Assembly (NCBI GenBank): GCA_033819885.1
Contig: JAQYUZ010000003.1
Span: forward strand, 620,001 to 684,000
Direction of reading: 5' to 3'
From: Microbotryomycetes sp. JL201
Lineage: Eukaryota > Basidiomycota > Microbotryomycetes
DNA length: 64,000 nt
This document shows, piece by piece, positions 46,845 to 62,694 of the stretch (the first letter of the stretch is position 1; each line of letters starts with the position of its first letter). A program made the position numbers and the translations under genes. The notes under the pieces were generated by a model. It did not search any database. It was given only the letters and a program-made list of their open reading frames with translations, and had not been told where the DNA came from.

Positions 46845-47096
46845 GTTGTTGCAGCTCAAGCAGAGTAGCTCGGCAGCGGCGACGTCAAGGAACTGCGGCG
46901 ACCCATAACTAATTTCTGGCATGAGCACGGAGACAGCTGTGTATCTACATGCACAGGAAGTATGGCCAGGGGCGAATAACGAATTACTTGTTCCTTTTCG
47001 CCAGCCCAAAAGAGCGCGCCGTTGCGTCCGACTTGGCCAATTCCCGCATCTTCAAACGAGCACGCGTCGCGTCATCATCTCACAAGCACGCTCGCC

Positions 47097-48705
47097 ATGT
47101 CACGCAGCCGTGATCTTGATGCGCCAGCCGAGATCGACTCGTTCGGACGGTCGCAAGCGACGCTCGCCGGCAGACGCCAACGCGTGCCCGCCCAAAGCAC
47201 AAAGGAACGCGGTCTTCCGTATCAGGTCAGTCTGCTCGTCAAAGCCGATGATCATCGAGCTGACTGTACTATGTGCCGCTTGACGACAATATCGCGCTGC
47301 TTCGCTTTGGCCTCTTGTTCGTTTCAGCGTCCGACGTCCGCACCCGCCGCAACCTTGAACAAGTGGGACCATGACTTGTTCACGCCACTCTCGAGCCTGT
47401 ACACACCCTCGATCAATCCTGCAGCGCTCAAGGGCGTCAAACAGGGCACGAGGCCCGTGTCCAGCTCGTTGCGCCCATTTGGCAGCTTGACGCCAGAAAG
47501 CGACACGTTGCAACTCGACCCAAGAGCTTCGAAACACGATCCAGCACGTGCACCTTCGTCTGCAGCGAGCATTGTCGGTCCGACGGCTGTCAGCGTCCAA
47601 GGGCAGTCGGCCAAAGTCAAAGAGCGCGAACGCGAGCGTGAGCGACAACAAAAGCAGCAGCAGGACAAGATACGCAGGGCAGAACGGAAGCGAAAGATTG
47701 AAGACAGGCAAAGGCTGGAGAAGGAACATGCAGAGCAGTCGCGCATCGCAGAACAAGAGGACAAGGGCTCGGTCGTCCAGGTCGAGGGCCTCGTTACCGG
47801 CACGAGCGCCGAGGATGTGCAGGCGAGCAGATCCTGAAGGACGCTACTTGGACACCGATGCTGACGATTGTCTCGTAGACGGCATTTGGAGCCTACGGAG
47901 AAACGAGCTTCTGCTTCATCGCGAACGAAAACTCGGGCAACGACTTGATTGCACGGCTAACGTTCAAACGATACGAGGACGCAAATCAGGCATGCATCAA
48001 GCTCAAGTTCGTCTGTGTCTTGCTGGCCTTTGTTGTGGTCCGTTTCGCTGAACAGTATGTGCGCTTGACAGTGGCGCAATTGCCGACGGAAAACCTTTGA
48101 CGGTCAAAATGGTCAATCGGACACCTTTTCCACCGCCGCTTCCCCCATTCGAACTTGAACCTGCTCCGAAGCCGACTCAGCTTGAAGAGGCGCCTAGGAG
48201 GTTCGCATTTCTTCTTTTGACCTGACAGAGCCTGGGACAGCTCGCTGAGCAGCAATGCTTCTACCACAGGAGGATGTATGCGGACGAGGTTGAAGCCGTC
48301 GATCCTAGGTATTCGGGACCGGTCGCGATCCAAGTCGATGAAGACGTCAGCATGGACGTCGAGCCACAAGTGCCCGTCACGTCTAATGGTCGCCAGCGCA
48401 GACGAGAGGGTCGACCTACCCTTGGTAGTAATGAACGTGCACCGTCTGCGCCGGCCGCGGTCCCTTCGTCAGGATCGACCTCTTTGCTCAGTCGGTTTGG
48501 AGGTTTGCCGAATGCACGTGATGGCGGGGCGAAACATTCGGGTACAGCGAGCGCACAGCAGTCTCAGCCAAATTCGTTTGGACGAAGCTTGCTTGACCGC
48601 CTGGCTCCAGCCGGTGGCAGATCGCCAAAGGCGAGTGGCGGTACCAGCGGTGGCGGTGGCAAGGGCAAATCAACGGGTAATTCGCTTGCAGGCAGGATCA
48701 AATGA
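47097..48705 (+). CDS. RRM-domain RNA-binding protein
   Basis: The start is ATG 47097 (MSRSRDLDAPAEIDSFGRSQ). After one intron there is a disordered region and a highly charged helix (KVKERERERERQQKQQQ). An RRM follows: VVQVEGLVTGTSAEDVQ, TAFGAYGETSFCFIANE and DLIARLTFKRYEDANQACIK, then LNGAIADGKPLTVKMV. The intron inside the RRM (47823-47878, 56 nt) seems to start with GC; this keeps the V-x-x-x-F spacing of helix 1. A following intron uses the acceptor after CTTGACAG. The C-terminal tail has three SLL/SLA-x-R repeats (SLLSRFGG, SLLDRLAP, SLAGRIK), and an LDRL-type end resembles mRNA-export adaptors. The exact orthologue is not recognised. Confidence 0.7.
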
Positions 48706-48828
48706 CAGCATGTCTATATTGGCGATACTTGCATACCGTGACGAGACGCATTTCTTGGTACAAGCTTGTTTGGATAAATTTGGAACGGTACTTGCCTTCA
48801 TCGATCGAGCGCGCCGGAACTGATTCCC

Positions 48829-51023
48829 TCAGCCGTCAATCGACACTTCAAGCTTGCCGTTTGCTGCAACCTCTTCGAGTACGCCTGTCTCGCTCTTATT
48901 TCAGCTCAGTCATCAGAAAAGTGAGAAAGGCGAGGTTACGCACATTCCCAATCTTCCTGATCTACCAGCGAGACGATCACGCCATCAGGGTCCTTGTACC
49001 TATAACAATTCCCGATGTCAGCCCCAAGAATCGACCGAATCCCGACATCTCACTTGAGCGAGGGCTCGAACTCGAGGCAGAACTTTGTTTGCAGACGACG
49101 TCGAAAGTTGACAAGCGACAGGTTACTTGACACAATCTGACGGGCACTCATCAGCCTATCACAAGATTCGAAATCGTACACTCATCTCGACTGACTAGAG
49201 CTCTGATCTGGTCTTGGTACCCGACCTTGACTCGGATCTTGGCTTGCGCTTCGTTTGACATTGGTTCGTTGGGGAGAGCGATGCCGTGTGAAGGACTGGA
49301 ACCAGGACCAAAGCTCGTTTCGGGCGTCGACAACAGGGAAGCGAGATGTTCTGTGATTAAATTCAACGAATCGCAGCGAGGTCTATCTGAACCTGGCTGT
49401 GCAAGCGGTTGACTGCTCGGTGATATGGAAGTATGCGCATTCTCGTTTTCGGCGTTCTTTGATTGTGAAGACATGCTCGTCAGACTTGCATTGGCTCGGT
49501 GGCGAGCCCAAGTAGCAACTCGACTCAGCAATGGCGGCGAGCTCGTTTCACTTGCCGTTGAAGCGACCCTAGCCTTTTCACTCGTCGTGCGGCTGCGTTC
49601 GAGCCTGCTGGGGACAAGGGGTCGCACGGGCGAGAAACTTTCAGGCTCTTCACGGAGGTATTCGTTGACGAAATGCGCGCCCGCATACATGGAATGGTCG
49701 GGCTCCTTGGCGGAAGATTGCATGCCGAGCGTTCGAGAAGAACTCATAGCTGCGATTCCAACTTGTCTTTGTCTCTCATCGAGTTCTGACTCAGCAGCGT
49801 GGGGCAAAGAAGGGGCGCTGAAGGCACCAACTGTTTGAGTTCGACCGAGCCTCGTTGATAATATCTGTGTTTGGTGGTCATCATCTTGATTCGAAACAAA
49901 TAAGGTGTTACCCGGCTGGGTGAGAGGCTTGGCCACGCCAACGAATGTTGTCTCGAGCCTTGCACCTGACGTGTTCGAACGCCTGGGTCTAGCACCTCGC
50001 GGGCTCTGATCGGATTTCTCTTTGCTCAGTTTGGGCCTTTGCCGAGTTGAACTTCCAAGCTCTGTATGCGCGTCATCAAGACTTGCGGCAGCGATCAACT
50101 TTGGCTTTCCGAGATAGTCGCGAGTTTCGAGGTTCTTCATCTTGACTTCTGCCGGTCGGAACAGCAAGCCTTCCGGCATGGTGTACAGTTCGTGCTTCTG
50201 ATGGCCCTGTCTTCAGCCCAGCCCGTGCTGAAAAGGATTGAGAGTGCTCACCGAGCCAAGTTTGCCGAGGGCTTCTTCAATCTTTGCGTGCTGTGGTTCT
50301 GCTTTGCGAGCGGCGGCCTCTCCGAGATCGATAGAGGCCTCTTCTAATGAGCCCTACTTGTAGTCTCAGCTTATCAGGCCCCTCCGTCGATCCAAAAGGC
50401 TGCTCACTTGCTCGATGAACGCGAGCGCGCGGTTGAAGAGTACCTCGCATGCGAAGAGGCGAAATTTGAGTCCGAGTCTGAGCGAGAACGTTGCTATCAG
50501 CGGCAATGTTCATTTGTAGATAGAGGAACTGATCAAGCTCACTGCTCGTAGTCGATGATGGCGTTGCCTCGCAGGTTCTTTTTTTTCAGCACAGATTGTC
50601 AGTTCCGTCTCCTTGGCAAGGGAGACGGTGTCACGCACGATGAATGCCTTGTCAAAGCAGCGCTCGGCTTGCCTGAATCTCTCAATCCTATAGCTGCTGA
50701 TACCAGCCAAAAAGTAGGCCACCGCCAGGAAAGGGTCGAGCTCGTTTGCTCGTTCGCAGAAGACGATCGCCTGCGAGTAGTCACCTTGCTGAGCGAGGAT
50801 AGCCGCCACGTTGTACAAGACCTTTGAAGAATCAGCAATGTCCTGCAGCCAAAAGCTGTCAGAAACTCTAAATGTGTGGGAGCTGTCGAGGAAACAGGTT
50901 CGGTGGCACAGATCTATTCAACGCGACACTGACGCGAAATAGCGACAAGGACGCATCCAAGTCCCCTTCATTGTAGGCTTCGAGAGCCTGTCCCCACACT
51001 TGTAGCTCGCGCTTGAGCGCCAT
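48829..51023 (-). CDS. NOXR: NoxR / p67phox-like NADPH oxidase regulator
   Basis: NoxR activates fungal NADPH oxidases together with Rac, using N-terminal TPRs and a C-terminal PB1 domain. The start is ATG 51023 (MALKRELQVWGQALEAYNEG). TPR segments follow: VLYNVAAILAQQGDYSQAI, VFCERANELDPFLAVAYFLA and RIERFRQAERCFDKAF, then after an intron LRGNAIIDYEQLDQF. A long Ser-rich disordered stretch (about 50200-49250) leads to KIRVKVGYQDQIRALV, the first PB1 strand; later exons give YKDPDGVIVSLVDQEDWE and VAANGKLEVSIDG, completing the PB1 pattern (D-x-D-G-x-x-x-x-x-x-D-x-x-D). The TGA is at 48829-48831. Domain order matches NoxR rather than other TPR-PB1 proteins. Confidence 0.75.
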
Positions 51024-52809
51024 GCCACCGTGACGCTCCAGATCGAGGGAGAGCAGAGAGGTGGCCCGAGCGGTGCATTGATTTGCTAAACTCGTTCTTT
51101 GTGTTCACCCGCACTTACTCATAATTTATCAATATTCTATGTCCAACATTGCAACGCGTGTCGCTGGCTCACTAGACGGTCCCCCCTGTTTACGAAGCTG
51201 TTTTCCTGAGCGCTGTCGGCGCTCACCTGTTTTGACTTCGTGCGGACAAACTCCTGTGAGTGGGCCACCCATCGCGCGCATCAGTGCCACCCTCAGACTT
51301 ATCAGTACTGACATTGTCTCTCGATGCGTGTCTTGCTAGGGCCAACACCGTGTTGCCGGCCCCCTGGACACTTTTCCTCGTCAATGAGGTTTACGGTGGA
51401 CTTCTAGGGCCATCCGAAGAGCCGTGCGTCAGGACCAGGATAACATTACGATCCAGTCGGTACTCTAGTCCGAGTATCCGCTTTGTGACAAGGACGTCTT
51501 AGCGCCCATACGCTCTCGGCTCACTTCTGCCTCTCGCTGTGCCTCGCAAGGGCCTTTGTTAGAGATGGAGACGAGGGCGGGCCGGTAGTCCTGACATTCT
51601 TTCCCCGTTGAGATCATCTACTCTGGCATGTTTTCCGTCTGTAATTAGTGTAACTAGCTCGAAAATCGCTGTGCAATCGACTGCCTTGTGACGCGAACCT
51701 TCATTGGCCTGCCCTTTAGACGAGAACACGCTCGAAGTAGCTCCATGTCATTTTGCGCATGATGACTGCCCACTTTCCGTGCGCTTGCGAGGGCACTGTC
51801 ATAACTCGCCACCAGCCGACAAACAAGTCGGACACGCGACGGACTCGCATCGCTAGTTCTAGACAAGAACTTCCCATTACATGATACCAGCATGCGCTGG
51901 CGTCCTTTTCAAGAACGTATTACATCTCAGACCGGTGAAGGCTTCCAACCGTCCTCATAACCTTCCACGTTGGCTTCCCTCGCTCGGTTAGGCACTGCAG
52001 ACATCGCGGGACGGCCGAGATTGAGACGACACGAGTAGACGTATGCATGTAAGCGACATTTTGTTGTAAAACATGACGAAGAGCGGTTCCGGCGTCCAGG
52101 ACAAGCGTCATCGGAGGAGAGAGGCACGAAGAAGGATCCGACGTCAGTATATCAAAGCGGTCCAACGTGTTCTAACAATGCGCACGTGGGTATGTTGTAG
52201 GTGGGCGCTCTGCGGGCTTCCAGCCAAAGAAGCGTTTACGGATCTCTGGCACGGCGACGACGGCGATAGGGCCTGCATGGAACACGGTTGGATCCAAGCA
52301 GCATAACGTGACAAAGACGATCGTTCGGTCCGAGAGAGTGGGCGTGTACAGCGGAGGCCAATACCGGGCGACGCAGTGACAAGCGGGCCGACACAGCAGC
52401 AGAAACAGGTTGCACGAGTGTCAGCTACCTCGAGAGCAGACAAAATCAGACACGAAGTATCTGTGACTGACCGACCGCGCCCACTGCCAGCGAGTAGAAG
52501 ATGACAGGCTGTTCGTGCGCCAGCCGTTGCTACAAAGACGCGACATCATGGTCAACACGGCTCTCGACGCACTCAGACGAGCCACGTCCAGCATACGCAA
52601 TATGTGTATGATCGCCGGAACGGGCTGAAGATGGCGGCCATGATAACACCGCGAAGTGGTTGGTGCGCAAGCCGGCACTCGTTGCAGCGACCTGCAATCT
52701 CATCTTGCCAGAGTCCTTATGCCAAGTGTCCAAGCGAGTACGCTTTTCATGTCCCCCATTAATGCTGAGATGGAATGCCACAAGAATCCGACTACCGAAA
52801 GAGCTATGT
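51024..52809. other. 1.8-kb region without a recognisable gene
   Basis: Upstream of NOXR and downstream of MPC1. All open frames are short (under about 120 codons), lack known motifs and do not join across plausible introns. It may hold the NOXR promoter and long leader, a non-coding RNA, or a gene too fragmented to see. Confidence 0.4.
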
Positions 52810-53746
52810 TCACTTCTTGATCGCATCCTTGGCCTCTTGTGCCAAATCTTTTGCTTCCTTGACACCTTCCTTGATTGCTGGTGTTGCACCACCATCTGTG
52901 CACATGGTTCGCGCCATGAGCGCGATCTCTAGACACGGATTGTCTAAAACTCACAATGATCTGTTGAGGCGCAAGAGCTCGATCAGCATCGGCAAGCGAG
53001 ATGCACCTGATCGTATCACTCACACTTGAAGAAACGGAAACCTTGTGCCAGTTGCGCTGTCGAGTTCGTCAAATGCTGGCAAAACAGATGAGCTCATCAG
53101 TTCCATCCCAGCTTGGGCGAGCATGATTCAGCGAGAGCCTTACGCAAGCGAACAGCAAATACTATGTGGGTGATGATCGTATCAGCATGAAGCAATACGA
53201 GTCGGGTCTGCGCCTCTGCCTACATTTCTTGGTTGGACACGCCACGCTGAGACACGAAACTGTCAGCTTGAAAGCGCGCATCGCCTGAAATAGGCGAAAC
53301 CACGTACCAAATCTCATGAAGACCATCCTACAATGTTACAATATTAGCCTTGCTGCGAGACAGGTGCGCTCGTAAGAATGAGAATCAAGCTCACGAGTAA
53401 GACGCGAGTGCGGCTGTCATTGGGCCAGAGATGTATTCAGGATCCTTGTTGGCCAAGTCGCCGAGGGCTGCAAGCGGCAAGCCCCAATTTGCGACGGGTC
53501 TGCGTGCATAGTGGACAGGATTGACGAGGTGTGAGCGCGAATGGCGAGCGTTGCGCAAGTGCGGGAGGAGTTATGCGCGACCATACGCCACAGCAGCCGG
53601 ACTGACCCCCAGAAATGAGTTGAGAAGAAGTACTTGCGCGCCTCAGGCGATCTGCGAATGGTCCCAGGACGTCAGACGCCAGCCGTCACAGGTCATTTGG
53701 CCTATGCTCGGGCTTACTTTGCCCAGTTGATGAAGGTTGAGGCCAT
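52810..53746 (-). CDS. MPC1: Mitochondrial pyruvate carrier subunit 1, nine exons incl. microexons
   Basis: MPC1 pairs with MPC2/3 to import pyruvate into mitochondria. Nine exons are read on the minus strand: 53718-53746 (29 nt), 53607-53651 (45), 53395-53499 (105), 53308-53327 (20), 53224-53246 (23), 53144-53161 (18), 53024-53075 (52), 52955-52960 (6) and 52810-52895 (86). They sum to 384 nt, 127 residues. The protein reads [94 protein letters not shown] and [18 protein letters not shown], a near-complete match to the MPC1 family. All eight introns have GT donors, AG acceptors and 59-107 nt. The 6-nt exon can be skipped without changing frame, so its use is the one uncertain point. Confidence 0.92.
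52955..52960 (-). other. MPC1: Putative 6-nt microexon of MPC1
   Basis: On the minus strand the six bases ATCATT lie between CCTCAACAG and GTGAGT. The flanking introns would be 63 nt (52961-53023) and 59 nt (52896-52954), both standard here; without the microexon a single 128-nt intron would remain. Inclusion adds two residues and yields FFKYHYGGA instead of FFKYGGA. Confidence 0.65.
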
Positions 53747-53955
53747 CTTGCATGTGCAATGATCAGATTCTCGTCTCGTCTGGGATCGACTGAGCGACGA
53801 ATTAGACTGACTGGATTCGGTAGAATGCCAAAGGAGACAAGCGCGGACGGCTCTCTTCGGCTTGGACCCATACGCGACAAACTTCTGCCATTCTGCGTTA
53901 TTGTTCACAGACCACCTGCACTTCTCAACCTCTTTGCATAACGGCAAGCCCCGTC
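53747..53955. promoter_or_regulatory. Divergent promoter, MPC1 / EFM7
   Basis: This 209-bp gap separates two start codons in opposite directions. No specific motif stands out. Confidence 0.4.
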
Positions 53956-55174
53956 ATGGATGCGCCCGCGTCGCCTGCCTCGTCAAGCTCGGACATTGGC
54001 TTCGGCGACATGATGGAGGTCAGTCAAAGGCAACAACGCGCAACAAAATCAGGTCAATCTTGACAGACAACTCGCTTGCAGGAACCAGCCAACTTCAGAC
54101 CAGCGACACCGCCGCCGACCGTCCGCACATACTCGCGCCGTCATTTTGCGACAGAGCATGAGCGGCCGGACGCTAGCAATGACGTTCGAGTAGGCCTCGT
54201 CAGTGGTCATCCTCTGTGGGGTGAGCTCTTGGCCTGCAAGTCGCCGCTTACAGAACCTTTACTCATTTCCAAAACTTTTGCACGCTCAGGCCACATTTTG
54301 TATCCAGCTGCGATAGCATTGTCACGTTTCCTCGAGCTGCATGCGGACACGCTTCTTCATTCTCAAGACAAAAAGGGCAAAGGCAAGGCGGTCATCGAAC
54401 TCGGAGCCGGCGGAGGACTGCCCGGGTTGGTCGCCGCACTCGAAGGCGCAGACAAGGTCAGAATGCAGTCACTACTTGTAAGGATTCGGCTGACATGACA
54501 TGAACTAGACCGTCATCACCGACTTTCCCGATCCTGCCTTGGTCGACAACATTGCCAAGAACATTGAGCTGAATGTTGCGGGCGGCTCTCAGCGCGCTGT
54601 GGCTATGGCAAGTTACGCTTCCCAGCGATTTTTAGGTCTCTACTGACCATACCTGAGCTTTTTAGGGCTTTACATGGGGAGCTCCTCCGACTAATCTGTT
54701 CGACGCGATCCGAAACGAATGCGATCCCTCACGCAAATTCGATCTTGTCCTGCTGTCGGACCTCGTCTTTAATCACTCTCAGCATGGTGCACTACTGGAC
54801 ACATGCGAGGCCCTTTTGTCGCCGCGCCAGGTGACTCGTGACGGTGAAAGCCCGAGGGTCCAGCAGCGAGACTTGCCGGCGTGCGATCTCAGCTCGCCTG
54901 ATCTGGACACTCCCGCCGTGTTGTGCTTCTTTTCGCATCACAGACCAACAGAGGCGCTAATCAAAGCCGATTTGGGCATACTCGCGCTTGCAAAATCGAG
55001 AGGGTGGACGGTGACTCGAGTGTGGAAGGACGACAGTGCCGGAGTGAGTGCTTCCAGCCGACTGATGTCTTGGACGACTGACAATCCTCTCTTCATTAGC
55101 CTGCCTTCCCAGAAGACGAAGGCGATCTATGTATACGCAGCACAGTGCATGGATTTGCATTCACGAGGCCATGA
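53956..55174 (+). CDS. EFM7: EFM7/NNT1-type protein methyltransferase
   Basis: Yeast Efm7 (Nnt1) methylates the N-terminus and Lys2 of translation elongation factor eEF1A. The start is ATG 53956 (MDAPASPASSSSDIGFGDMM). After the first intron comes VRVGLVSGHPLWGELLACK, the family's entry motif. The S-adenosylmethionine loop is KAVIELGAGGGLPGLVAAL; the next exons give TVITDFPDPALVDNIAKNI and FDLVLLSDLVFNHSQH, equivalent to later methyltransferase motifs. The last exon reads PAFPEDEGDLCIRSTVHGF with TGA at 55172-55174; this ending is characteristic of the family. There are about five exons. Confidence 0.86.
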
Positions 55175-55294
55175 TGATGAGGAGGCCCTTACAATCAGAA
55201 CCTCACCTACGCGCCGTGCCCGAAGCAACCTCAAAATCACCTACGCCCGTCTGCTCGTTGAGCGCTCAGTTGTCTGAATTGTCTGTAATCGCCT

Positions 55295-56938
55295 TCAGAA
55301 ACTTTGGCTGCTCACCGTCTTCCAAACGACCGTGATCCGATGGCTTTCTGTCCGAAACTCCCACCTCGTGCCGCCGAGGCTTACCCAATGCCTGCTGAAA
55401 TGGGATTCTTGATTGATCTGAGACTCTTTGGGAAGTTTGCGACAGTGAACTTTGACGTAAGCGTGACCGTGACCGTCTTCCGTGACGAGCGTTTTTTGGA
55501 CGCCCAAGTCTAAATGGTCGTGAAGATCCTGGATGCAAACTACTTAAATTCAGAGTCGGTGACAAGTCAATCAGGAGTACTTGCCCTGAGAGCAATTGAG
55601 AAATTCATTTCTTTCAGTAACAATATCAACTCTCGTTCGAGTTTTGTTTCTTGAGCAGAAGCATTCGACGAGCTTGATGATGCAGAGGAGTAAGATATGC
55701 CACTGACTTCGCTTGCAGCGCGATTCGGGAACAGAGTAGCTTGGGCTGGAGAGACAGATGCGGGTCGGCGAGGGGAACTTGCTGGAACCGCCGCGGGTGG
55801 TTTTGTAGGGGCAATGGGCTTTCGCGGAGCCAGATACTTGAAGCTCGAGACGGACTCTGACTGAACGCCGTGAGGATGAGAACGACTGTACGAATTGAAT
55901 GGCAGCTCGTGGCGTAACGAACCGAGCCCGTCGAGAGGCGATGGAGGGCGGTACGAGCTGGGCGGGGCGCCCGAGCTCTCCACGGGAAGCATACTATTCT
56001 GATGCATGACTGACGTGAGAGGATTGCTCGTTGGAACACGTCGTCGATGAACATCTATGCCGGCGTTGAGTTCGTCCAGGCTAAGGTCAGTCGCGACGCC
56101 GGTGCCGATCGCGGTCGAAGAGTCGTCGTCATCGTGATATCCCACGCTTGACTCTGCCTCATCGTAAGTTTCCATCTTCGGCGTCGAGTACCGCTGTTGT
56201 TGCTGCACCAGCTGTGTCCTCAATCTCGGAGGTGGCGGCAAGCCTGGCGCAACGGAAGCATGCATTGCTTGCCTGGAGTACCGCGGTTCTTCATATCTTG
56301 AATCAATTATCGGATAGCCGGCTTCAGACTCTGCTACGACCGTGTCGTCGTCCGAGTCTCGCTCGTCCTCGTCAGAGATGATCGACTGACGTTGACGAGG
56401 AGGCGGCCGAATTCTCGGACCCGAGCTCGACCCCGGTGTCGGACTCAGGCTCATGGATCTCTGGGACAGATGTGTTGTCGTGTTCAGAAAGGCCTGACTT
56501 GGATTTGTGCCATATGCAGGGACAGAGGCCGAACGGACATTCGCTGAGAGCGCTGGTCTCAATGCCGGGCGAGGAGGAGCGACATTTGCTGGCGCTTCGT
56601 GCTTGTCAAAAAACACTTGGTCAGACACGGGATCCTCCATGAAACCCGCTCTGAAGGTTTGTGCAGGAACGGGCGGCAAAGCAGATAGATCGGTGGCCAC
56701 CGCCTGCGTCAATCAAGATCAAAGTGAGGTTCTGCTAGAGAATCACGGCTGCCAGTGAAGGACGCACAGTGTCGTCGTCATCATCACTAGCTTGACTATC
56801 ATCCACTATGACCAATCTCGGCGGCGGTACCAAGCCATTGCTTGGCAGTGCTGAGATTCAACAGTCAGCTGAGACCGCGGCGGAGAGTTGCAATCAATCC
56901 TCACGAAGCCTTGCAGGAGGACGATAGGCATGCCTCAT
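55295..56938 (-). CDS. Unknown, mostly disordered protein with a folded C-terminal segment
   Basis: I do not recognise this protein. A start at ATG 56938 (MRHAYRPPARL) fits in phase through a GTGAGG-donor intron to LPSNGLVPPPRLVIVDDSQ. Another intron joins to AVATDLSALPPVPAQTFRAG. The bulk is Pro/Ser-rich with a polyglutamine patch and acidic clusters. At ELILLLKEMNFSIALR the frame soon hits a stop, unless a 56-nt GC-AG intron (55529-55584, donor GCAAGT) is removed. The continuation DLHDHLDLGVQKTLVTEDG and SHFSRHWVSLGGTRWEFRTE looks like a compact beta-rich domain and ends at TGA 55295-55297. The N-terminus is the least certain part. Confidence 0.55.
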
Positions 56939-57096
56939 GCGTGCTCAAGCCATCAAGAGGCTACTTTTCCGAGATTGGACTTGAACTCTCGCTCGTCCGC
57001 GGACAGACAGTCGAAGAGCTCCTGAATGCACCAGGCGAGAACTGCGAAAAACATAGCAATAACAACAAGGAAATCATCGGTAACCGAACTACGTAT

Positions 57097-58730
57097 CTAA
57101 GACTGCATGCTCGATTCGTCCGTCTGCACCGAGGCACGCGATGAGCTGGAACGCTGGATCCACGTCGCTGGATCCTCGACTCCAGGCGGTAGCGGGAACT
57201 TGGCCTTCTTAAACTTGCTGTGATCAAGTTTGGACAGGTCCGAGAAGTTGACGAGTTGAAGAAGGTACCTTGCCACCCAAACGAGCTCGAGATCGGTGGC
57301 AGAGTGATTCATCGCATCTTTGTAGGCTTTGAGCTTCAAGCCGTTGCGAGGGTTCATAGCACTGGCGAGCGAAGCCATTAGCACTGACAGAGGTGGATGG
57401 ATGGCTGACGTGACACGCACAAATTCCTGCTTAGGTCATCGACAGCGATCGAGTTTTGCTCGCTCCAATGGGGAAACTTGGCCCAGAGCAGTCCCAGCGC
57501 TTTGACCTGAGGGCTCGCTTTAGCATTGAGTGCACCTTCAGAAACAATGATCGTACCTCGTGCTTGTACGGCTTGCCATTTTTCGTGGAATACACCGAAA
57601 ACATGGCGCGGCGATCAATTGTCGAAATGACGGGGTACCCATGACGAGCCGTTTCTCCAATGATCTGCGTATCAAGAAGTTAGTACATCCATCACAGTCT
57701 TCGTCCATTGCCTACGTCAAGTTCGATCTGGGAAGGACAACGTGTCAGCCAGATCGTACCCTGAACAATCGCAACTCTCGTACCAATTTCTGCTCCAGAA
57801 AGCGCCAGCTCGTTTGACTGTTAATGCAGAGGTTCACTTGAGTCAGGGTCATGAGCAGCACATCGTCAGCTCACCTCCAAATCACAATATCGTAGAAAGG
57901 GGAAACAGCCTCCAGAAATTGATGCAAGTATGGCCTGGCAAAATCTGCGTAGCACTCATTCAGACGATATTGACTTGCCGTAATGTCGCAACTTACGCTC
58001 GGCGACAAAATTTGACTCTTTCCACAGTGCCGTATCCAAGATGCAATAATCGAGATCGAGCACGAGCAAACGCTTGCCTTGCGTCGGGTGTTGCTGTCAA
58101 GGCAGCGGTCACCTCTTGATCCTTGAGAGAAGCACAGAACTAACCATGATGTCTATCTTGTAGGCGTTGATCGTCTGGGCGAGCTTGCGACTGGGCAGCA
58201 GTTCGTCAGCGCGCACGCGATTGATTTTCGAGACGGGGCACGGACCGATTGCGTGCTCCTTGAAGTGCAACATCGAGCAGTCCCTGGGCCGCGTAGTCTA
58301 TGTCGTCCTCGGCATCGTTCGGTGGCGGTGGCGGGCCGAGCTCTTCGCCCTCTGGAGTGCCCACCATCATAAACTTGCGCGCTGGTCCATCCGGGCTCAG
58401 GCCGAGGCTCTTTACTTCAACTTCGTCACCTGGCAGCTTGCCCTTGACGAGCCCGATGAGCTTCTGGCGGTCAGGCGCGACACCCGTCAAGCTCCATAAC
58501 GACGCTTTGACGTCACCGAGACAGTCTGTCTCGACCACTTGGACAGGCAGCTGTTGGCCTCGCCACGAGCATGTGAGGATGTAAACAATCTCGTCTGGCA
58601 ATAGTGCGGTGCCAACTGCCGCAGACTCGGCCCCGCTCGCCATGTTGTCGGCAACAATCGACGCGTCATTCGCGACAGGCACGACTTCAGAAGGATTCAT
58701 CGTCATTTGCGTCCCTTTCTGATTCGACAT
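57097..58730 (-). CDS. UBLCP1: UBLCP1-like proteasome phosphatase
   Basis: UBLCP1 has an N-terminal ubiquitin-like domain and an FCP-type HAD phosphatase domain that dephosphorylates nuclear proteasomes. The start is ATG 58730 (MSNQKGTQMTMNPSEV). The UBL part is ILTCSWRGQQLPVQVVETDC, then LIGLVKGKLPGDEVEVKSLG. A PPPPPND hinge leads to NRVRADELLPSRKLAQTINA. The phosphatase loop is GKRLLVLDLDYCILDTALWK; the nucleophile Asp is present, but the fifth position of DxDxT is Cys. Later exons give YADFARPYLHQFLEAVSPFY, NGKPYKHE and WSEQNSIAVDDLSRNFALNP, then NGLKLKAYKDAM, all as in UBLCP1. It ends DESSMQS at 57097. Identification is strong. Confidence 0.87.
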
Positions 58731-58892
58731 GGTCGCCAATGATGCGTCTCGCGCTGTTCAGCAGTCGAGACAAACGCGGCCTGAGCGCGACGGATCGCGT
58801 CTCGATATCCAAAGCAAGACATATGTTGATGACAAGAAACAAAAATGACGCAGACATACAAACACAGTGACAAAATGAAGGGGTGCGCCAAT

Positions 58893-60695
58893 TCATGATG
58901 CCGCCACCTCGCTCGCCGATTCACCCTTGGCAGCCGCGGTAGCCGCCTTCTTCGCAGCTCGTTCCAGTGCAGCGGCAGCTTCTTCTTCACGCTTGCGTTT
59001 TGAGCTGCCGCTCGGCGCCACGCCGTTCAGCAACTTTTTAGAATCGCTCGCCGTAAAGTTGATAAACGAGAACCCGCCGTCTTTGCTCCGCCGACCAGCT
59101 CTCGGCGCATTGTTGGTCGATCGACGAGCGGGTGTGACGGGCCGAATTGCTTTTGGCAAGTCTGGCTGAGAAGACATGCGCCTCGGGCCAGCTCGAGGCG
59201 TGATCGTGGTCGGAGCAGGCCCTATCGGTGACGAGGCTTCGTACGATCGTGGATTTGTATACGTTGGTGTCGGATAGCCAGAAGGGACGCGATTGTATTG
59301 AGGAGGCGTCTGAGGTCCGCTCATGTGATGGTAGTGCGATGGCGGTGGCGGCGGCAAATGCGGCACCGGGTAGGCGTTTCCATGTTGTATGCCACCGGGC
59401 GCCATCTCTGGGAACGAGCGCGGGACCGTGTCAACGGACGAGGTCCTACGATGCATGGCATTCTGAACCGCGACCGAGCGGAATGCGGGGGGCGCATACG
59501 TGCCAGGATAAGGCGCAAAGCCTCCGCTACCGATGGCAGAGCCAATGTCTGGCGATGCGGGCGCCGATCTCGGTCTTTCGAAAGGCGGGTGTAGCAAAGG
59601 TTGACCTGGTATAATGTAATCTGAAGGCTGCCCGACTTGGCTCTGACGCCGATTGACCGATGTTACCTGGCCATATGCTACTGACGGCGGCGGAGAGCGC
59701 CGTCTGCTGGATTCTCCGAAAGGCTGCTGCCAATGAGTGTGGTACCGTAATGTCGGAGACTGGGAGTAGAGCGCGTAATCTTCTTCATCGAGGATGACGC
59801 CGTTCAAGTTGTACGTCTGACCGGTCGCGACGGGTGCCAGAGGCAGTTGTCGAGGGTAGGCCGGTGTCGGTGGCGCTCGTGCGGGTTTTACTTCCGGCGA
59901 GACGGCTGCCAGGCCCTCAGGGCCAAGCATTTGGCTCATATCATTCATGAACTAGAGTTTCCGATAATTGAGAATCAGCTTGGGAGTGAGGCAAAGGTTC
60001 TCAGCGCAACTCACCTGATTGACATCTTCGATTGATGGTTGCTGATTCATTGGCTGACTCTCGGGGCCAGCGATAGTGATGCCAAGGTCACCAGGGCTTC
60101 CGAAAGCGATACCCGGCGGTCCGTTGACGAGCGAGGCGGAAGCGGACTCGCGGGCGCCACTCCGGGCGGCTGCACCAGCATTCGTGCTTCGCTTCCGAGG
60201 CCGGGGCGCTTGAGCAGCTCGTTGAGGATTCTCTGCCGTCGCTCGGGCTTGCTGAGACGGGCGGCGATTTCTTATCTGTTGACCTGAGCCGACCGGTGGC
60301 TGGCCATCCCTCGGATTAGGGATGCTTTCCTCTGACTTTGGAGAAGGAGGCGAGCCGGAGGCAAACATGCTCGTGACGGCCCCGATTTTGAGACCCTCAG
60401 ATGGGTTCTGAGCGGCATTTGTGGCGTAGAAAGGTGCAGGCGCTTGCCCGACAAACACCGCTTCGGAACTTCGAGCGCGGCGCAAAGGACTGGCCCGCGG
60501 CGACTGGGCCAGGTAGGGCGACGTCAAACCGATACGCGAATCGTCAAAGAGGCCATAGAATGAGCCGTTGAGCAAATCTTCTTTCGAGGGACTCGTGCTG
60601 CCAATGTCGGGCCAGGCAGGGACGGTCGGAGTCGCGAGCGGGTCAGGCGCCGAGTACAGACCCCATTCGGCCGGGGCTTGAAACTCGGTTTCCAT
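58893..60695 (-). CDS. Putative regulatory protein, disordered, with a basic C-terminal motif
   Basis: From ATG 60695 (METEFQAPAEWGLYSAPDPL) one exon of about 230 residues is Pro/Ser/Gln-rich, with basic patches (PRPRKRSTNAGAAARS). An intron between about 60017 and 59948 joins PSIEDVNQ to FMNDMSQMLGPEGLAAVSPE. The C-terminal exon has GGFSFINFTASDSKKLLNGV, then APSGSSKRKREEEAAAALER. A segment of the type FINFTxxDxxKxLxGVAPSGSSK recurs, as I recall, in uncharacterised fungal nuclear proteins; that is memory, not a search result. The basic stretch is a likely nuclear signal. A role in transcription is a guess. Confidence 0.5.
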
Positions 60696-62694
60696 CTTGA
60701 CAATTGGCTTCGTCGTCGTGATTGCAATGCAATGTGCCAAGGCCGAGGATCAACGGTGTCCGGTCGACGATCGGACTGGCCACAGCGCTGAGAAGTGGTG
60801 GCGGCTGTCTGCGCTGTCCCCGCTCGAGCCTCAATCGCTTGACAATGCCGTCGCTCAGTCGCTGGTCGCCGGCGCTGTCGATGCTCACAGTCGGTGCAAG
60901 AGCCCTCGGCGCCGTGCAATGATGCGACCTTGATTCTGCGGACTTAGATCTGTCGTCTTGCGCAGCACCTGCTCGGCTGCCGGCAGTCTTGCGGAGACGT
61001 CTTGCGAGCGCAACGCCGGTTTTGGAAGGTTTGCTTTTCTGCAGGAAAGTCGTGTGGACACGAACAACTCCGTGATTCTGCTGATGTGGATGAAAGCAAA
61101 CCTGCCAAGGCTGTGCAGCCAGTGTGAAATGCTTCATCGCCCTTTCATTTGCATTTCTGCCCGAAGCTCGAGCCATCCACCGGGCGTCAGCCAAATCAGC
61201 AAGCCTTCCTTCGCAAAGTTGCGCCTGGCGCGAGGGACCGCGGCTGACGGCCGAGATGTCAATTTGATGACGCAGAAAGGAGCTTGGAGACTACAAAATG
61301 CGACCATCGGCAAAGTGACATGTGTCGGCAAGCGAGTGTATCGACAATCAGGCTTAGCCGCCTCAGACTCGTGAGAGCGAACAGACTTACGATGAGGCAG
61401 GTCCTGTTTACACATTGATAACCTGGTCAGGACGCAAAAACCTTGGAGCTTGTCAAAGCAGCGAAGGGGAGGAGCGCGAGAGGGTTGTGCCCTTCCCATC
61501 GAGCTGAATTAACTTGCACAACATGATTTTACTGTCGTCACAGCGAGTTGCTTGACATGCAAGTGCTGCATAGTCTCTTTCTCCGCAAATTCGCGCCTGC
61601 CAGGCTTTTTTGGCGGTTCAAGGTTTCAAAAGAGTTGCAAAGCATTTCAAAGCTGTGAGGAACAGATTTCTCATGTACGAGTGTCTAGGAGTTCCGAAGG
61701 GTATTTGCGATCGCCATTTGGTCGAGGCCTTTGTGAGGAGCACGTTACAATTCGGCCTCATACTCAAACAGGCTAGATGGCTTTTTCATAAGCTTGAAAC
61801 TGGACCCTTCGGCTCCGCCAGCACAAGCTAACTAGTGTTTCTTGAGGTGATTGTTCGAGACACGTTTCATCGCATAAAATGTACCTGAGTGACAACAGAG
61901 TGTCTCGACGGCTTTCACTTGCCGAAGCTTACCCGCCCGATCTGTGTCACTTGTAGAATGCGACTCACATGCTTCATTGCATCTTTGTGTACCGAAACTT
62001 GCGCTGGTGCCATAGTCTATTCCCCGAAACGCTTCATGTCGACAGCTTGACACAAAAGCAGGAGCCTTCGAATGCATGCCTCGGTTTTCAAAGGTTTATC
62101 TGGAAGCAAACCTATAATGTTCTGCTGAGCTCTGTGCGGTCTACTCAGATGACGGACCTCCTTTTCAGATTGGTCGCACCGCTGTGCCCGCTCGACTTGC
62201 TGTTTCGCCGTGTTCAGTCGCCAAACCTGTAAGCGTCACTGCTTAGTGAGACTTGCTCGGCATGTGATCGACCGTGTCAATGTGTGCTTTACGACCTCGG
62301 ACGACTCCAATAATGGTCCTATGGAGATAGAACAGCGGCGCAAAGAAATTTGAACCGAGGCCCAGATCGACCGCGCACACGCCGTATGACAACGTCGGAC
62401 AGCCAGGAAAAGGAAATGAGAAAACGTTAGATGTATTTGGTTCTACGCCTGGCCGGCACAAGAGGGGCCGGTAGGCTGAAAAAGGGCACCGCGGGTTCAT
62501 GCGACCGCGACACCTCTCGACGACGTCTCCTGTACGCCATCCGACGCGACTTCCGCAGATACCACTAGTTATAGCACACACATTGACACGGTCGAGGTGC
62601 GGAGGCGCGGTGGACAGCCAGGGCTGACTTCGTTCCCCCGTCTTTTGTACCTTTCTGCAGCTCTTTTCAACCCCCCTCTCGACTTTAATCAAAA
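60696..62694. other. 2.0-kb region without a recognisable gene
   Basis: It separates the start of the putative regulator (-) from RPL23 (+). The first several hundred bases contain minus-strand open frames (to 61194 and 61499) with no recognised domain. About 61500-62240 has only short frames. The last stretch holds the RPL23 promoter with a pyrimidine-rich run (CCCCCCTCTC) just before the start. A long 5' leader for the regulator is possible. Confidence 0.4.

What the first reader, a model, noticed from the sequence alone, without database searches (positions are those of the whole stretch)
52810..53746. MPC1 shredded into nine exons, including an apparent 6-nt microexon
A 127-residue protein is spread over exons of 29, 45, 105, 20, 23, 18, 52, 6 and 86 nt. 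Every intron is GT-AG and every phase fits, so four exons shorter than 25 nt are well supported. The 6-nt exon ATCATT has a strong acceptor and a GTGAGT donor, and dividing the region into 63- and 59-nt introns matches the genome's intron size better than one 128-nt intron. Exons this small are too short for ordinary exon definition and suggest efficient intron definition.
Basis: partly seen in the sequence, partly recalled or inferred. Interest (0 to 1): 0.85.

Follow-up and report, generated by a model that had tools for sequence, protein, structure and literature searches.

The report
MPC1 gene with six-nucleotide exon
The mitochondrial pyruvate carrier gene of a basidiomycete yeast is very probably split into nine exons, one of them only six letters long; tiny exons are common among the genes sampled in this genome and were already known in related yeasts, and gene catalogues of the yeast's relatives seem to miss this same exon often.

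Summary
On the minus strand, 53746..52810 splices into nine exons (29, 45, 105, 20, 23, 18, 52, 6, 86 nt), with eight GT-AG introns in phase and a 127-aa MPC1. The identical protein is already deposited for Microbotryomycetes sp. JL201 on a contig of the same length, so a model with the 6-nt exon is not new. No transcript was available; support is comparative. Of 152 listed MPC1 homologs not named as Microbotryomycetes, 151 carry the Tyr-x-[Tyr/His/Asn] that the exon completes. Splice sites and coding this good appear in 3 of 20,000 shuffles. New here: 9 of 21 Microbotryomycetes MPC1 models are two residues short at this point, several beside an intact congener, which suggests a class-wide 6-nt exon that annotation overlooks. 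The partner gene MPC2 in the same genome needs a 7-nt exon whose loss would shift the frame. In 25 control loci, 14 of 63 trusted internal exons are 30 nt or shorter. Exons of 5 and 6 bp, set against cDNA, are published for basidiomycetous yeasts. Verdict: very probably real; a new member of a known kind.

The parts
53718..53746 (-). MPC1 exon 1 (29 nt, ATG)
53652..53717 (-). intron 1 (66 nt, GTAAGC..CAG, phase 2, CTGAC branch-like motif)
53607..53651 (-). exon 2 (45 nt)
53500..53606 (-). intron 2 (107 nt, GTCAGT..CAG, no CTRAY motif)
53395..53499 (-). exon 3 (105 nt)
53328..53394 (-). intron 3 (67 nt)
53308..53327 (-). exon 4, microexon of 20 nt
53247..53307 (-). intron 4 (61 nt)
53224..53246 (-). 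exon 5, microexon of 23 nt
53162..53223 (-). intron 5 (62 nt)
53144..53161 (-). exon 6, microexon of 18 nt
53076..53143 (-). intron 6 (68 nt)
53024..53075 (-). exon 7 (52 nt)
52961..53023 (-). intron 7 (63 nt, GTGAGT..CAG, phase 1)
52982..52986 (-). CTGAT branch-like motif of intron 7, A 22 nt before the 6-nt exon
   Evidence: position read
52955..52960 (-). exon 8, 6-nt microexon ATCATT; with the neighbouring exons it completes Tyr98-His99-Tyr100
52896..52954 (-). intron 8 (59 nt, GTGAGT..CAG, phase 1; only a weak CTCAT motif)
52810..52895 (-). exon 9 (86 nt, to TGA)

Best explanation
This is the MPC1 gene of the basidiomycete yeast Microbotryomycetes sp. JL201. The spliceosome removes eight short introns one by one (intron definition), so the 6-nt exon ATCATT is kept because introns 7 and 8 each carry their own signals; it is included constitutively and adds the conserved Tyr-His pair near the C terminus of the carrier. 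The same 6-nt exon is probably shared across Microbotryomycetes and is missed by many gene models. Shown: DNA, frame, splice-site quality, conservation of the encoded residues, matching gaps in relatives' models. Inferred: that transcripts include it, that inclusion is constitutive, intron definition, and the exon structure of the relatives.
For: Model reproduced. Identical 127-aa protein deposited for JL201. Tyr-x-[YHN] at the site in 151 of 152 listed homologs not named as Microbotryomycetes. The 127-aa form aligns better than the 125-aa form to 150 of these 152 and to 10 of 11 Microbotryomycetes models outside the short group (global; local 149 of 152 and 9 of 11). Splice sites plus coding reached in 3 of 20,000 shuffles. 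Intron 7 has its own CTGAT 22 nt before its AG. Nine of 21 Microbotryomycetes models are two residues short here against 0 of 152 others, with intact congeners in Sporobolomyces, Rhodosporidiobolus and Rhodotorula and both forms within R. toruloides. The Sporobolomyces carnicolor model (P0121) reads through 114 in-frame nt at the same position, consistent with a T|GTGAG donor and a GCAG|AYAAYT acceptor (bases inferred from residues). MPC2 of the same genome needs a 7-nt exon. Control loci: 14 of 63 trusted internal exons are 30 nt or shorter.
Against: No RNA reads were available. Skipping the exon keeps the frame, so the reading frame does not force inclusion. Intron 8 has no CTRAY motif, only CTCAT. 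Two of six spliced alignments did not choose the 6-nt exon, one of them to a protein that has the Tyr-His (P0120), and introns 7 and 8 failed my own trust filter. Against the nine short Microbotryomycetes models inclusion wins in 0 of 9 globally (4 for skipping, 5 ties) and 3 of 9 locally (4 for skipping, 2 ties). Aligned directly to JL201, six of the nine short models show a one-residue gap at this point, not two, because JL201 is itself one residue shorter after Tyr100. DNA of the relatives could not be read.
Confidence: 0.9

Rival explanations
1. The 6 nt are not an exon: a single 128-nt intron joins 53024 to 52895 and the protein is 125 aa (KYGG).
For: In frame; 128 nt lies inside the observed intron range (16 of 100 at 120 nt or more); nine Microbotryomycetes models have the corresponding short form; Pfam score nearly the same (111.2 against 113.1 bits).
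Against: 151 of 152 listed homologs not named as Microbotryomycetes have the two residues; good sites at this spot are rare by chance; the CTGAT motif would lie 87 nt from the distant acceptor; the nearest relative by score, JL221, is annotated with NYHYGG.
Confidence: 0.06
2. The 6-nt exon is a regulated cassette: inclusion and in-frame skipping give two MPC1 forms with different carrier activity.
For: Length a multiple of three; both forms are present among gene models of one species, R. toruloides (P0004, P0049 with; P0139 without); a regulated 20-nt exon exists in Trichoderma Xlr2 (passages).
Against: The short R. toruloides model is also garbled at exon 4, so it looks like a poor model; the residues are nearly invariant outside the class; the Sporidiobolales genomes paper describes annotation by GeneMark-ES and Augustus with NP11 proteins as hints, with no RNA data mentioned in the passage seen; the human MPC1 4-nt exon is constitutive.
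Confidence: 0.07
3. The two-residue gaps in relatives are true lineage-specific losses of the codons, not missed exons.
For: DNA of the relatives was not available here; three of the nine short models (P0005, P0034, P0156) have no intact congener in the set.
Against: Would require repeated loss of exactly two codons in six genera, in three of them next to an intact congener, and within one species.
Confidence: 0.1

Closest known systems
bglA beta-glycosidase genes of basidiomycetous yeasts (PMC9142197; passages seen)
   Same: Many introns of about 60-80 bp, several microexons, some GC-AG introns; smallest exons 5 bp (Sirobasidium magnum) and 6 bp (Rhodotorula minuta), set against cDNA, and 18 bp in Hamamotoa singularis (taken there from earlier work).
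   Different: Different gene; [quoted passage not shown] A fourth yeast, Sterigmatomyces elviae, had no microexon.
Human MPC1 exon 2, a constitutive 4-bp microexon (PMC9929638; abstract and passages seen)
   Same: Same protein family, microexon in the coding region, included almost completely in mRNA.
   Different: It is the second exon, flanked by long introns and defined by exon-definition signals; here the 6-nt exon is the last but one, between 63- and 59-nt introns.
P450 genes of Phanerochaete chrysosporium (PMC1184071; passages seen)
   Same: Basidiomycete, shortest exon 6 bp, microexons coding 2-10 aa, small introns.
   Different: A large gene family; here a conserved carrier gene.
1-nt exon of Fusarium CYP621A (PMC12940212; abstract, introduction and discussion read)
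   Same: Ultra-small fungal exon inferred by conservation.
   Different: Smaller, needed for frame, and confirmed by SRA reads.
Trichoderma Xlr2 20-nt microexon (PMC11121469; passages seen)
   Same: Conserved fungal microexon missed in annotation.
   Different: Regulated by glucose; regulation was not testable here.

Membership tests
Mitochondrial pyruvate carrier 1 (MPC1, PF03650) | MPC domain above the curated cut-off | tested here: met
   113.1 bits, cut-off 27
Mitochondrial pyruvate carrier 1 (MPC1, PF03650) | MPC1 rather than MPC2 subtype | tested here: met
   best PDB matches are MPC1 chains (2.4e-36), best MPC2 chain 1.3e-9; a separate MPC2-like gene lies on C14
Microexon (internal coding exon of about 3-30 nt) | Internal exon of 30 nt or less between two spliceosomal introns with proper sites | tested here: met
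   exons 4, 5, 6, 8 of 20, 23, 18, 6 nt; sites GT-AG; shuffles for exon 8
Microexon (internal coding exon of about 3-30 nt) | Encoded residues conserved in homologs | tested here: met
   151 of 152 listed homologs not named as Microbotryomycetes, 11 of 21 Microbotryomycetes models
Microexon (internal coding exon of about 3-30 nt) | Included in mature mRNA | not testable with these tools
   no reads held; only the deposited protein model
Regulated (switch-like) microexon | Inclusion varies with condition | not testable with these tools
   no expression data
Intron-defined splicing | Short introns each with donor, branch motif and acceptor | tested here: inconclusive
   median trusted intron 67 nt; CTRAY in 6 of 8 MPC1 introns, missing in introns 2 and 8

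The most novel reading that the evidence does not exclude
A 6-nt exon in MPC1 has been kept across the whole class Microbotryomycetes, and its in-frame skipping, together with the frame-breaking 7-nt exon of MPC2, makes both subunits of the pyruvate carrier depend on microexon recognition, so that a change in splicing efficiency could turn mitochondrial pyruvate import up or down in one step.
Probability: 0.07. Interest if true: 0.75.

Novelty: new member of a known kind. Interest (0 to 1): 0.36.

Why it matters
It gives a clean, checkable case of a 6-nt exon in a conserved metabolic gene, and a practical warning: two residues are missing at this point from 9 of 21 related gene models, so protein catalogues of red yeasts (including one model of the oleaginous R. 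toruloides) may carry small in-frame deletions where gene callers skipped microexons. A genome in which 14 of 63 sampled internal exons are 30 nt or less would also be a handy system for studying how a spliceosome keeps exons too small for exon definition.

Tried and rejected
Papers on the strain: JL201 with Microbotryomycetes, 0; JL201, JL221, yeast, genome, any three: 4, unrelated by title. Papers on the theme: microexon with fungi, 61, of which 25 were listed; micro-exon with basidiomycete and intron, 2; two of microexon, Rhodotorula, Rhodosporidium, Microbotryomycetes, Sporobolomyces, 1,235, of which 10 were listed, none with microexon; microexon with Rhodotorula, 2; micro-exon with Cryptococcus, 0; R. 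toruloides with introns per gene and alternative splicing, 0; microexon with S. pombe and intron definition, 2; mitochondrial pyruvate carrier with microexon, 2, one on human MPC1 and one on photoreceptor metabolism. Within these searches I saw no fungal MPC1 microexon. Two apparent 3-nt exons in control loci (RPS23 L021, 14-3-3 L049) were rejected: poor sites, no residue support, and they arise where my aligner's cap of 250 nt per intron splits longer introns; all counts were redone without them. One search missed the 7-nt MPC2 exon because the fetched stretch L028 began after exon 1; one search used L001 instead. A gap scan against JL201 was less clear than the family spacing because JL201 is one residue shorter than most homologs after Tyr100. 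Loci L029 and L030 (actin-related) were fetched but not aligned, and further places listed by the control searches were not followed. No structure was predicted: it would not decide inclusion.

Full report
What is there. Pfam calls the product MPC (113.1 bits against a cut-off of 27), and its best relatives of known structure are MPC1 chains, far ahead of MPC2 chains.

Whose it is. The best database hit is an identical 127-aa protein, 'pyruvate transporter mpc1' of Microbotryomycetes sp. JL201, on a contig of 684,734 bases, the length of the window's contig C23; equality of the sequences was checked. The organism is a basidiomycete in Pucciniomycotina, class Microbotryomycetes. A deposited protein therefore already contains the residues of the 6-nt exon. 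On what evidence that annotation rests is not known to me.

Is the 6-nt exon real? It completes Tyr98-His99-Tyr100. I collected 173 MPC1 proteins, JL201's own included, in three searches (each lists only its best 120 of more than 1,000 hits). I sorted them by the names given: 21 Microbotryomycetes and 152 others; some of the 152 are unnamed metagenome proteins. At this site 151 of the 152 have Tyr-x-[Tyr/His/Asn]. The exception, P0167, an unnamed protein, reads N-C-Q-S there and ends soon after, which looks like an unspliced intron with a T|GTCAGT donor at this very position (inferred from residues). The 127-aa form scores better than the 125-aa form against 150 of the 152, with 1 tie and 1 against (global; local: 149, 2 ties, 1 against). 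Against the 11 other Microbotryomycetes models outside the short group inclusion wins in 10 with 1 tie (local: 9, 1 tie, 1 against); against the nine short models it wins in none globally (4 against, 5 ties) and in 3 locally (4 against, 2 ties).

Chance. In 20,000 dinucleotide shuffles of the 128-nt stretch from donor 7 to acceptor 8, an AG-N6-GT with introns of at least 45 nt on both sides occurs in 9.8%, one with good sites in 0.23%, and one that also codes Tyr-x-Tyr in 3 cases. Intron 7 carries its own CTGAT motif 22 nt before the exon, like the CTRAY motifs at 16-22 nt in 6 of the 8 introns; intron 8 has only CTCAT, a weak point. That CTRAY is the branch consensus of this organism is my reading of these introns.

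Independent spliced alignment. I wrote a protein-to-DNA spliced aligner and ran six homologs against the locus. Introns 1-6 came out identical in 6 of 6. The 6-nt exon was chosen in 4 of 6 (P0003, P0013, P0016, P0006) and the full chain to intron 8 in 2 of 6 (P0013, P0016); P0003 and P0006 took other last acceptors, P0120 and P0034 did not take the exon. The C terminus is divergent, and I take that to be the cause.

A footprint in the relatives. Of 21 Microbotryomycetes models 11 keep Tyr-x-Tyr, 9 are two residues short (P0005, P0006, P0011, P0015, P0034, P0045, P0122, P0139, P0156), and one retains an intron. Short means that the residues run like Y-x-G where the family has Y-x-Y-x-G; for P0122 and P0139 it is exactly two residues fewer than R. 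mucilaginosa and than other R. toruloides models with nearly the same tail. Six of the nine stand beside intact congeners: Sporobolomyces koalae and ruberrimus against blumeae and phaffii; Rhodosporidiobolus lusitaniae and azoricus against ruineniae and odoratus; Rhodotorula dairenensis against mucilaginosa and araucariae; and R. toruloides has both (P0004, P0049 with; P0139 without, a model that is also garbled at exon 4). P0005, P0034 and P0156 have no intact congener in the set and are less certain. Fisher's test of 9 of 21 against 0 of 152 gives 9.5e-10, though related species are not independent. The Sporobolomyces carnicolor model P0121 reads through 114 in-frame nt whose ends fit T|GTGAG and GCAG|AYAAYT (bases inferred from residues; whether intron 8 exists there cannot be told). 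A paper on Sporidiobolales genomes describes annotation with GeneMark-ES and Augustus and NP11 proteins as hints (PMC12093110, passages); that the JCM-numbered models here come from it is my inference from strain names. The simplest reading is a class-wide 6-nt exon that gene callers often skip, in frame and therefore without a trace.

How unusual is it in this genome? Ten human proteins typed from recall were used to splice 25 further loci, chosen from the places that the searches listed (the MPC2 locus came). Without two 3-nt artefacts, 68 of 93 internal exons in 26 loci pass a flank-identity filter, 63 of them outside MPC1. Of these 63, 14 are 30 nt or shorter, in 10 of 25 control loci, and 3 are 15 nt or shorter: 7 nt in MPC2, 12 nt in a Rac-like gene, 13 nt in an ARF-like gene. 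MPC1's own introns 7 and 8 fail that filter (6 of 8 introns pass). The MPC2 exon GACCCAA completes His-Pro-Ala-Gly-Pro-Lys-Thr and is not a multiple of three, so its skipping would break the frame; it is chosen even when each intron is charged 12 points more. GC-AG introns are 6 of 100. A 6-nt exon is thus at the small end of a common habit.

Mechanism. Short introns with their own signals make intron definition the natural reading; under it splicing efficiency depends on intron length and not on exon length, and PRP40 is cited as needed for exons too small for enhancers (PMC8624252, passages). I take inclusion to be constitutive. Not shown: any transcript.

Known context. Work on bglA genes with cDNA found 10 microexons with a minimum of 6 bp in Rhodotorula minuta, and lists 3 with a minimum of 18 bp in Hamamotoa singularis (which I recall as a Microbotryomycete), and calls such structure a putatively common feature of basidiomycetous yeast genes. 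Phanerochaete P450 genes go down to 6 bp, a Fusarium P450 to 1 nt. Human MPC1 has a constitutive 4-bp exon, but it is exon 2, between long introns. So this is a new member of a known kind; the added value is the probable class-wide conservation and the annotation gap.

Noticed in passing
L001:1138-1144 (G000 contig C14): MPC2, the partner subunit, has a 7-nt internal exon GACCCAA between 143- and 82-nt introns; its length is not a multiple of three, so the protein needs it. The same gene has a GC-AG intron (GCAAGT).
   Followed up: yes
L024 (12-nt exon AATGCTTTCCCC) and L025 (13-nt exon ATTCAACGTCTGG), minus strand of the loci: Rac-like and ARF-like genes of the same genome also have internal exons of 12 and 13 nt that match human homologs.
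   Followed up: partly
P0002 (Microbotryomycetes sp. JL221 MPC1 model): The nearest relative's deposited model lacks eight conserved residues (HLTNSTAQ in JL201) at the start of exon 7, as if an internal CAG had been taken as acceptor: probably another gene-model error.
   Followed up: partly
P0139 (R. toruloides MPC1 model): Besides lacking the two residues, the model is garbled at the place of the 20-nt exon 4 (SYSCVGMRAWRV for SYSLVFMRFAWRV in P0004).
   Followed up: partly
G000, 100 trusted introns in 26 loci: Six of 100 introns in the sampled loci start with GC (GC-AG; all GCAAGT, the only GC donor my aligner allowed).
   Followed up: no
window 47022-60740: Six of the seven open reading frames of 180 aa or more around MPC1 were scanned and have no Pfam match at 1e-3; they may be spurious frames or parts of split genes.
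   Followed up: no
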